Assembly: GCA_949825025.1 (NCBI GenBank)
Contig: OX463778.1
Coordinates: forward strand, 3,362,501 to 3,426,500
Direction: 5' to 3'
DNA from: Siphlonurus alternatus
Lineage: Eukaryota > Arthropoda > Insecta > Ephemeroptera > Siphlonuridae
Length of the DNA: 64,000 nucleotides
Both the position numbers and the translations under genes were made by a program. This document shows positions 27,301 through 60,074 of this stretch, in pieces; positions within the stretch are counted from its first letter, which is position 1; the number at the start of each line of letters is the position of its first letter. The notes under the pieces were generated by a model that saw only the letters and a list, made by a program, of their open reading frames with translations, did not search any database and had not been told where the DNA came from.

Positions 27301-30300
27301 ATAAAGTTAACTTAGAGTGTATATTACTTTGATTTTATAAGAACAAATTAAGAATATTTCCAACTGATGTGTGCAAAATTTTAATAGGTTTAAAATAGTC
27401 TTTAGTTTGCTAATGAAGATACAGTCTTTTGAAACACTATAATTCTGCAATCTTTTTTGTTTACAAAGTATGAAACTAGTGTTGTAAAGTCTTTGATAAA
27501 AAATAATTAATTTGTTTGTTTATTTATTTACAGTATTTATTTATTTTTTTTTTAAATATTTATTTTCATATTACTATTTATTTCTTATTCTTGTAGGGCA
27601 ACGTTGGGAGATGAAGCTTCTTGATGATGCAGTCCGCAAGGCTGCCGTAGAGAAACTGTTGAACCCTCTGAAAGCTCGCCGAGCGCGGCTGCAGGAGCAG
27701 CTGAACAACGACGAGTTCCGAGGCTTGCCCACCAAGAAGACTCGTCAGCTGCTGGAGCAGCTGGAGGAAGAGATCTCGGAGCAGACGGGAGAGCCCCTCT
27801 TTGAGCTGCTCCATGACGCAGAGGCAGAGCTTGACTGGATGAAAGTGTCCGCCTCCGATGTACGTCAAATTATTAGTGACCCCCAACGTTCCTTTATACA
27901 GGTTAAGCCACCGATTGGACCAATGTTAAAGGGCTAAGCCAATCACGTTCAAGTATTTTTGGCCACATCGTGCCGCGAAACTTTGAATGCGTCCATCATG
28001 CAATGCTATTTTTGAAATTTCGCGGTACAATGTGGCCTGAAAATTTAACGAAATTGACGCACGAAATGCGTGCGTGTCTTAACCTGTATAAAGAAACCTT
28101 GGTGACCCCTTAGTAGGCAAACAATTAGTTTAACATTAATATCAGTCGTAAGATGGAATAAAAAAAGAGGGGAATGGGGGTCAGAACTTCTCCCCTCTAT
28201 CATAAGATTATGTGAAATGTTTAGGGTGTGGGTTTTCCCTTGATATATTTTGTTTAAAGCAATGTTAACACTCTTTGAACATATAGACTATGGTGCTAGT
28301 TTTTATGTAATACTGTAGATTAGAGTACTGTTATAACATGTAATAATAACATACTAAATTAGAGCACTTTTCTTATTCTTTGGTATATTCTAGAAACAGG
28401 TTCTTACTCGCTCTGCGATTTTACATTAAAAAAAAAAATACAACTCTGTTTGCTTCGATATGGTTTCACTGACTTGTTGCTTTCATGTTTCAGTTTCTGG
28501 GAAGACGCTCCGCCAATGAGTGCCAAGCCATGTGGCGGTGCTGCCTCATGCCGGGCATCAAGCGGGAGAACTGGAAGATCAAGGAGACCACCATCCTCAA
28601 AGTAAGACTCTCCTGTAATAAAATAAATGTTATTTCAGAGTGGATGATGGTATAAATGACAATTTTGCTTGTAATTTTAAATATTAACAACACTACTAGA
28701 GCCTACAAATATTCAAAATATCCATTTGATCAGCCACAGATGACTGATTTTGACCAGAATTAATAGAATAGATTTATTGTGCTAGACTGGATAATCAGAT
28801 GAGATAACTTTCTTAACAGGAGCTTGCCCATAAGCACAAATTCCAGGATTGGGAGAAGATTGCTGAAGAGTTGGGCACCGGCCGCTCAGCTTACCAGTGC
28901 TACATCCACCTTCAAGTAACATTCAACCGGAAGCGAACACTGTGGACCAAGGCTGAGGATAGGAAACTGATGGCCAGAGTTGCAACCTACAGACAGGGAT
29001 CGTATATTCCCTTCGCCAAGGTAAGTTTTTCTTGTTTGTGTTTCAACTGTACAAGAAAACTGCAATTACATTTGATTCAATGTACATAGTATTTGGGTTG
29101 TATTTTATGTTAATATTAATTAAAAATGGCTCATGCTGTAAACATTACTAATTGCTTACATTATTATTTTAAGATTTTCCCAATTGTATGAATCAATATG
29201 TTAAAAGTTGTCTTGCTGCAAAGCTAGTATTGTATTAAATAAAATGTTAATTTAGGTGGCTGCCACGTTTCCTGGTCGCACGAGCCAACAATGCCGTCAA
29301 CGGTGGATAAACTCGTTGAACCCCAACATTTGCAGTGGCAATTTTACTGCTCGTGACGACCTGATCCTGGCCACTGCACGCCACACCCATGGGCTCACTT
29401 TCAGCCAGATCTCGAGCGTGCTGCCACAGCGCACACCTGGCCAGCTGCGCAATAGATACTTGCGCCTGCAGAATCTCGAACCCTCTCTGCCTTGGACACC
29501 GTGAGTTAAACTTTAATTCTTTTTTTCCTCTTTTTTATATCCTATATATATTTCTCACTACAACATATATGTGTTTTAAAATTATCTGTTTTCGAATTCA
29601 CCTTGCAACAGTAGAAAAATTGATAAAAAAAATATATAAATCACCAAGCATAATTTAATATTCAAATTAAGGAAAATAAACCATTTAGGTTGTGATAATC
29701 TTATTAAAAGAAAAGGATAGGAATAACCAGCAAGGCCTTACCAATCGAAAGAGCATCGTAGAATCTACTTTTTCTTGTGACTGAAGAAGCATCTCCACGA
29801 TGCGAAACGTTTCAAAAATGTAAAAACTTTCAAGTGAACCTCTGTGACCGCAAGAATTTCCACCTGCTGTGACTCTTTCGATCGGTAAGGCCTTGCTGGT
29901 TATTCCTATCCTTTTCTTTTAATAAGACAAGCATAATTTAAGTTGTTTTTTACTTTGCATCAGCAAGTAATAGTCAGGGGAACAAGAGGAAAAAATAGTC
30001 GAAATCGCGCGTTTAGTGAAGAAAGCATGAATTTTTTTTTGGTGGTAGAGTTCACTCCACAGATCAATTTTTTTGGCGGAGTCGCGCGAAAATGACCTTA
30101 GTTCGAACCCCCGTGACCTTAGACCCCGCGCTTCTTAATTATTTTTTCCTGCCTATACTTTTCATTTTAGAGGAAAAATGTACTCTTGCAAAACTGTTTG
30201 TAATAATGAAAAGGTGATAAGAAAAAAAAATCAAGTTCTTAAATTAATTATTTTCAAAATGGCGGCTAATTAACTTAATTAATTCATGAATTCTTCGTAC

Positions 30301-60074: not shown

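What the first reader, a model, noticed from the sequence alone, without database searches (positions are those of the whole stretch)
29973..59171. A 29-kb foldback element with inverted satellite arms inside a Myb-coding gene
Seen: ~1-kb terminal inverted repeats with matching tips (gtcaggggaa), TA on both sides, and two opposed arrays of one ~161-bp satellite making up about 16 kb of its length. Known: Drosophila Foldback elements have long inverted arms built of short tandem repeats, but not at this size. Inference: this is one giant mobile element, or a decayed autonomous one whose arms expanded by satellite amplification, rather than chance assembly. I know of no described family with this combination.
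Basis: partly seen in the sequence, partly recalled or inferred. Interest (0 to 1): 0.88.

Follow-up and report, generated by a model that had tools for sequence, protein, structure and literature searches.

The report
Giant satellite-armed transposon nested inside another
The 29-kb structure is two jumping genes, one inside the other: a common 3.7-kb one, interrupted by a 25.5-kb one whose two arms are long mirror-image satellite arrays, and the second belongs to a genome-wide family of such giants.

Summary
The features are real, but the boundaries were misread: w29971-59173 is two nested transposons. Outer: 1-kb TIRs beginning TAGTCAGGGGAA. The TA is part of the TIR; the duplication is 3 bp (16 of 18 testable copies match; the window copy matches at 2 of 3 bases). 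20 of 20 other complete copies in the fetched loci (size filter 2.5-6 kb) are 3.48-3.88 kb, without satellite. Inner: w31094-56613, 25,520 bp, with a perfect 9-bp duplication, 41-bp TIRs (40/41) and all the satellite. Its joined flanks match outer copies L009 and L010 at 201/201. Its end occurs 58 times genome-wide (control 0); 42 ends form 21 adjacent convergent pairs of 7.7-45.1 kb, one T- and one A-type end each. Satellite follows in 28 of 30 fetched ends; 9 of 11 tested pairs have perfect 9-bp duplications. So the inner family is a giant foldback-type DNA transposon with decayed Ulp1/PHD remnants. Closest kind: Rehavkus (9-bp duplication, PHD finger, inverted ~164-bp arrays, 9.5 kb in Tribolium). 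No transposase domain was found, so membership is unproven. New variant of a known kind.

The parts
29971..59173 (.). Outer element: 29,203 bp here, 3,674 bp without the inner insert and one copy of its 9-bp duplication
   Evidence: TIR pair; 20 other complete copies of 3,483-3,879 bp, TA included
29971..30991 (+). Outer left TIR, about 1.02 kb, begins TAGTCAGGGGAA
   Evidence: BLASTN against right arm, 981/991 plus 23/24
58162..59173 (-). Outer right TIR
29968..29970 (.). TAA, presumed 3-bp target duplication of the outer element, left copy (2 of 3 bases match the right copy)
59174..59176 (.). CAA, presumed 3-bp target duplication of the outer element, right copy
31085..31093 (.). GTTCACTTT, 9-bp duplication of the inner element, left copy
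56614..56622 (.). GTTCACTTT, 9-bp duplication of the inner element, right copy
31094..56613 (.). Inner giant foldback-type element, 25,520 bp
   Evidence: TSD, TIR and paralogous empty site; 21 pairs genome-wide
31094..31134 (+). Inner TIR, T-type end
   Evidence: 40/41 against the other end
56573..56613 (-). Inner TIR, A-type end
31423..38671 (+). 161-bp satellite array, T arm
   Evidence: TRF
47814..56227 (-). 162-bp satellite array, A arm
   Evidence: TRF
38588..39121 (+). Open frame with the C-terminal part of a Ulp1/C48 peptidase; its first 28 codons read the end of the satellite array
   Evidence: Pfam PF02902 E 6.9e-14; close relatives at 16 places, window included, all in or next to inner-family ends
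39273..39407 (+). Decayed PHD-like finger downstream of the Ulp1 frame
   Evidence: Pfam PHD 22.6 bits, below the cut-off of 24
41916..45627 (-). Non-LTR retrotransposon nested in the inner element (989-aa frame at 42092-45061)
   Evidence: RVT_1 E 6.4e-33; absent from copy C2:9559364-9572585, whose middle aligns on both sides of it
29256..29504 (+). Open frame with host Myb-repeat exon, upstream
59212..59373 (+). Open frame with host Myb-repeat exon, downstream

Best explanation
Two DNA transposons are nested. First a ~3.7-kb element with 1-kb TIRs inserted, with a 3-bp duplication, into an intron of a Myb-repeat gene. Later a 25.5-kb element of a separate family inserted into it with a 9-bp duplication. 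Shown: the nesting, the 9-bp duplication, the genome-wide inner family, and the satellite arms being part of that family. Inferred: the inner family moves by cut and paste, by a DDE transposase of MULE/Rehavkus/Foldback type supplied in trans, because no copy examined holds a recognisable transposase. Inferred: the ancestor carried a gene ending in Ulp1-PHD next to the T arm, and internal deletions that start at that array removed it to different extents. Inferred: arm length changes by unequal exchange, which with nested insertions spreads the elements from 7.7 to 45 kb.
For: Empty site: joined inner flanks match L009 and L010 at 201/201 bp. Outer family: 20 of 20 other complete copies in the fetched loci satellite-free; 3-bp duplications in 16 of 18 testable cases against 13 of 306 mismatched pairs; copy L028's flanks joined with one duplication align without a gap at the junction to several paralogous repeats. 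Inner family: 58 ends, 0 in the reversed-pattern control; 21 clean pairs by adjacency, 7,696-45,071 bp, median 19,421, each with one T- and one A-type end (read). TSDs: of 11 clean pairs with both ends in hand, 9 are 9/9, one 8/9, one 6/9. Satellite: in 28 of 30 ends; all places listed lie in or beside inner elements. Ulp1: 26 rows at >=65% identity at 16 places, 13 in clean pairs, 1 in the C1:6.70-Mb complex, 2 inward of single T-ends. Deletion series: L062 keeps the most gene, the window less, the C2 copy none, and the C3:47.79-Mb copy has arms meeting head to head.
Against: No MULE domain (PF10551, 28 places) lies in any of the 21 elements. The 194-aa frame of L062 that I take for a transposase end has no Pfam family, no hit in the protein database, and one match in the genome, itself. 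Clean pair C3:47.79 Mb has only 6/9, and two pairings in the C1:6.70-Mb complex (one of them the 556-bp miniature) have 3/9 and 1/9. 10 of 21 pairs were not tested for TSDs. PHD is below Pfam's cut-off. For the outer element, the window copy itself (TAA/CAA) and L009 do not show the 3-bp duplication.
Confidence: 0.9

Rival explanations
1. One 29-kb foldback element with 1-kb TIRs and satellite arms.
For: TIRs and arrays all lie in one symmetric structure.
Against: 20 of 20 other complete outer copies in the fetched loci lack the satellite; the inner element has its own ends, TSD and empty site; the inner ends occur genome-wide with the satellite.
Confidence: 0.01
2. The inner family is a true Rehavkus family, mobilised by a Rehavkus transposase in an unread copy or lost from this individual. 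(This refines the best explanation.)
For: 9-bp TSD, 41-bp TIR, PHD-like remnant, inverted arrays of ~161-bp repeats, as reported for Rehavkus (PMC6446971, passages; PMC10218199, passages).
Against: No Rehavkus transposase was identified; 'Ulp1' occurs nowhere in the main text of PMC6446971.
Confidence: 0.45
3. The inner family is a non-autonomous giant of some MULE family, mobilised by one of the genome's MULE genes with a long open frame. (This refines the best explanation.)
For: 28 MULE-domain places, several with long open frames (five of 569 aa, one each of 558 and 554 aa); 9 bp lies in the 8-11-bp MULE range.
Against: None lies in a giant element; the ends of those MULE elements were not read.
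Confidence: 0.3
4. The satellite is an independent genomic satellite that was captured, or spreads by itself, and the TIR pairs are incidental.
For: TE-associated repeats can also form separate satellite arrays (PMC4079207, passages).
Against: 28 of 30 ends enter the array at 229-546 bp in the same orientation; no listed array lies away from inner elements (15 of 68 candidates scored, list cut).
Confidence: 0.04

Closest known systems
Rehavkus DNA transposons (Rehavkus-1_TC of Tribolium; PMC6446971 and PMC10218199, passages)
   Same: 9-bp TSD, short TIR, PHD finger, terminal arrays in inverted orientation; unit 164 bp in Rehavkus-1_TC against 161 bp here
   Different: Rehavkus-1_TC is 9.5 kb with mostly five and eight monomers; here 7.7-45 kb, with about 45 and 52 monomers in the window copy. 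Ulp1 next to the array. No Rehavkus transposase found.
Foldback elements: Drosophila FB (recalled) and Tm1 of root-knot nematodes (PMC3169594, abstract part and passages)
   Same: Composite TIRs built of tandem repeats of variable number; 9-bp TSD in Tm1; size variants down to MITE-like copies; asymmetric ends (A1/A2 motifs in Tm1, T/A ends here)
   Different: Tm1 repeat unit is ~14 bp and the copies sized in the passages read are about 1 kb or less; no Ulp1 seen in those passages
Tetris of Drosophila virilis (PMC4079207, abstract and passages)
   Same: Foldback element with ~220-bp tandem repeats in its TIRs; repeats also form kb-size satellite arrays; no autonomous copy found
   Different: There, long arrays also exist apart from the element; here kb-size arrays were seen only within elements (partial list)
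For the outer element: TIR transposons with 3-bp duplications (PIF/Harbinger, CACTA and others, recalled)
   Same: 3-bp duplication
   Different: 1-kb TIRs beginning TAGTCAGGGG; no transposase looked for; superfamily not tested

Membership tests
Rehavkus | 9-bp target-site duplication | tested here: met
   9 of 11 tested clean pairs 9/9, one 8/9, one 6/9; 10 pairs untested
Rehavkus | TIR of 26-400 bp | tested here: met
   41 bp, 40/41
Rehavkus | Tandem repeats next to the terminus | tested here: met
   28 of 30 fetched ends
Rehavkus | PHD finger in the transposase | tested here: inconclusive
   PHD-like remnant, 22.6 bits against a cut-off of 24, downstream of Ulp1
Rehavkus | Rehavkus-type DDE transposase | not tested
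   No reference sequence held; the 194-aa candidate frame (L062) is unmatched
Mutator-like elements (MULE) | 8-11-bp TSD | tested here: met
   9 bp
Mutator-like elements (MULE) | MULE transposase domain in the element | tested here: not met
   0 of 28 PF10551 places lie in the 21 elements
Foldback (structural class) | Long inverted arms made of tandem repeats | tested here: met
KDZ (Kyakuja-Dileera-Zisupton) | KDZ transposase | not tested
   The two requests for PF18758 did not complete
Tc1/mariner-like (outer element) | TA target duplication | tested here: not met
   TA belongs to the TIR; 3-bp duplications lie outside it in 16 of 18 cases, and the L028 empty site lacks the TA pair

The most novel reading that the evidence does not exclude
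The inner family is a giant transposon lineage with its own transposase gene ending in Ulp1-PHD, distinct from MULE and Rehavkus, whose satellite arms work as expandable arrays of transposase- or silencing-factor-binding sites. Most monomers carry TCCCGCC (38 in the T arm, 49 in the A arm), which also lies near the tip at 9 of 16 T-ends but only 1 of 14 A-ends. The family would then be the birthplace and carrier of this satellite.
Probability: 0.2. Interest if true: 0.75.

Novelty: new variant of a known kind. Interest (0 to 1): 0.55.

Why it matters
It shows foldback-type transposons tens of kilobases long inserting as units, carrying kilobases of satellite per arm to new chromosome sites and, here, into an intron. 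That gives a datable system for two open questions: how satellites disperse along chromosomes, and why some transposons keep tandem arrays at their ends. It also corrects a nested-element misreading that would have created a false family.

Tried and rejected
Single 29-kb element: rejected. In one search the L028 flanks joined with one TA left 5 extra bases against paralogous repeats. One search shows why: TA is part of the TIR and the duplication is 3 bp. Polinton/Maverick for the outer TIRs: considered for size and TIR length; rejected because the duplication is 3 bp and not 6 bp (Polinton features recalled). Ulp1 as sign of a KDZ element: not answered. Autonomous partner: the 614-aa Ulp1-PHD ORF family (L061) looked promising, but its six full-length copies lie outside the 21 elements and it is only ~40% identical; no other frame over 119 aa lies in the 4 kb read around it, and those frames were not scanned. 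Protein database searches for the 614-aa ORF and the 194-aa frame gave no hit. TCCCGCC as a shared end motif is weak: 9 of 16 T-ends and 1 of 14 A-ends. Common array-break phase: window and L062 break near the same monomer phase, the C2 copy seems to break elsewhere (by eye), so not claimed. In one search only 39 of about 97 monomers were cut, because the anchor missed the rest. No paper text that I saw describes this family; searches were made, and papers opened (passages only) were PMC6446971, PMC4079207, PMC10218199, PMC13359780 and PMC3169594.

Full report
WHAT WAS CHECKED. The 1-kb inverted repeats, the TA next to their tips and the two opposed satellite arrays are all in the sequence. 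The left array is 7,249 bp and the right one 8,414 bp. The two arms of the 1-kb repeat are 981/991 identical. The flanking exons code for Myb repeats; PDB relatives are c-Myb first and, for the upstream exon, snRNA-activating complex subunit 4 lower down. That the gene is SNAPC4 is my guess.

THE OUTER ELEMENT. The window is C1:3362501-3426500 of an unnamed 455.7-Mb genome in 102 contigs. A 1-kb TIR query gave 43 matches at 96-100% (40 of 256 candidates scored, so a lower bound). I chose 20 loci from that list. They hold 20 copies with exact tips at both ends, 3,483-3,879 bp with the TA included. The script accepted pairs 2.5-6 kb apart. Not counted: L011 (left tip altered, about 3 kb), the second copy in L019 (cut by the end of the locus) and L024 (one end only within 10 kb). 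BLASTN shows no satellite in any of the 20 loci (satellite rows under 60 bp were dropped). I first took TA as the target duplication; that was wrong. TA is constant and belongs to the TIR (TAGTCAGGGGAA). Outside it the flanks share 3 bp in 16 of 18 testable cases, against 13 of 306 mismatched left-right pairs; two tandem pairs (L015, L021) were each taken as one unit and the inward-facing ends left out. The two misses are L009 and the window copy (TAA/CAA). The flanks of L028, joined with one copy of its 3 bp, align without a gap at the junction to several paralogous repeats. The superfamily was not worked out.

THE INNER ELEMENT. Copies L009 and L010 run straight from w31093 into w56614-56622 with a 9-bp overlap. 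In the window those points are 25.5 kb apart. Joining 101 bp on the left (with one GTTCACTTT) to 100 bp on the right gives 201/201 identity with both copies. The insert, w31094-56613, is 25,520 bp. Its ends are a 41-bp inverted repeat, 40/41, differing at one diagnostic base (GAAGTTATCC left, GAAGATATCC right). Without it and one duplication the outer element is 3,674 bp, the usual size.

THE INNER FAMILY. A 29-base end pattern with up to 2 mismatches has 58 matches in the genome and none for the reversed control. Pairing neighbours, 42 of the 58 form 21 clean convergent pairs of 7,696-45,071 bp, median 19,421 bp, together 450,066 bp. Every pair has one T-type and one A-type end. The other 16 matches are 6 in a rearranged complex at C1:6.70 Mb and 10 singles. 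I had both ends of 11 clean pairs, the window included: 9 have perfect 9-bp duplications, C3:27.02 Mb has 8/9 and C3:47.79 Mb 6/9. In the complex, the 556-bp miniature has 3/9 and the pairing from 6698517 has 1/9. Of 30 ends fetched, two of them the window's own, 28 run into the satellite 229-546 bp from the tip, all in the same orientation; in three of them (L033, L051, L058) the satellite covers only 254-721 bp of the 1.5 kb read; the two ends without it belong to the miniature. T-ends average 97.4% identity over 320 bp (15 ends, L032 left out) and A-ends 98.8% over 147 bp (14 ends); 13 of 15 and 13 of 14 have a partner at 99% or more. I infer fairly recent movement. The satellite search gave 511 matches from 15 of 68 candidates; every place listed lies in or beside inner elements, but the list is cut.

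THE INTERIOR. The window copy keeps the C-terminal part of a Ulp1/C48 peptidase and a PHD-like remnant directly after the T array. Ulp1 matches at 65% identity or more (26 of 42 rows) fall at 16 places: 13 in clean pairs, 1 in the C1:6.70-Mb complex and 2 inward of single T-ends. The other 16 rows, at 26-46% identity, lie elsewhere. Copy C11:4.93 Mb (39.8 kb) keeps more: between T array and Ulp1 lie frames of 194 and 172 aa. To my eye the 194-aa frame resembles the end of a Foldback/Rehavkus-type transposase, but no tool supports this, and the genome search found only itself. Copy C2:9.56 Mb has a 3.6-kb middle without Ulp1, and copy C3:47.79 Mb has its arms head to head. I read this as a series of internal deletions starting at the T array. 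The non-LTR retrotransposon at w41916-45627 is a later insertion, because the C2 copy aligns on both sides of it.

MECHANISM. A 9-bp duplication with precise TIRs points to cut-and-paste transposition by a DDE transposase (established for such families; inferred here). No MULE domain (28 places) lies in the 21 elements, but the genome has several MULE genes with long open frames. So the elements are probably moved in trans. Which enzyme does it is not known.

COMPARISON. Rehavkus has a 9-bp TSD, 26-400-bp TIRs, a PHD finger and a minisatellite before the 3' TIR (PMC6446971, passages). Rehavkus-1_TC is 9.5 kb, with arrays of a 164-bp unit, mostly five and eight monomers, in its inverted termini (PMC10218199, passages). 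The inner family matches these features but is larger, has much longer arms, and shows Ulp1. Without a transposase I do not file it as Rehavkus. It works like a foldback element.

LIMITS. One assembly; no reads. 10 of 21 pairs were not tested for duplications. Genome searches score best candidates only. 

Noticed in passing
G000:C1:6695806-6714990 (ends in L031-L035): Rearranged inner-family complex. The flank of the A-end at 6695807 (GGTTTCTTT) recurs as its exact reverse complement (AAAGAAACC) at the T-end at 6698517, which suggests that exchange between inverted copies flipped about 2.15 kb.
   Followed up: partly
L061:857-2701 (C4:8038856-8040697): A multicopy family of 614-aa proteins with Ulp1 and a C-terminal PHD-like finger (by eye; Pfam 11.0 bits, below cut-off). 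Six full-length copies at 96-100%, five without stops, all outside the giant elements.
   Followed up: partly
window 19682-25701: Another foldback-like layout: 15-bp arrays (19682-19826 and 25572-25701) and 80-bp arrays (23643-23835 and 24875-25161) whose units look reverse-complementary (by eye).
   Followed up: no
window 33272-33570, 11002-11301, 12511-12811: A ~260-300-bp self-complementary repeat, one copy inside the T satellite array; the same repeat is the target of outer copy L028.
   Followed up: partly
L015, L019, L021: Outer elements in direct tandem that share one TA; the tandem pairs in L015 and L021 are flanked as a unit by matching 3-bp duplications (GTA, TCG), as if they had inserted together.
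   Followed up: partly
G000, e.g. C3:15279540, C4:1101383, C11:39901687: MULE-domain genes with 569-aa open frames at five places with equal or near-equal scores, outside the giant elements.
   Followed up: no
L059:3255-4891: The middle of the C2 giant copy carries 107-bp and 313-bp tandem repeats that did not align to the window copy's middle.
   Followed up: no
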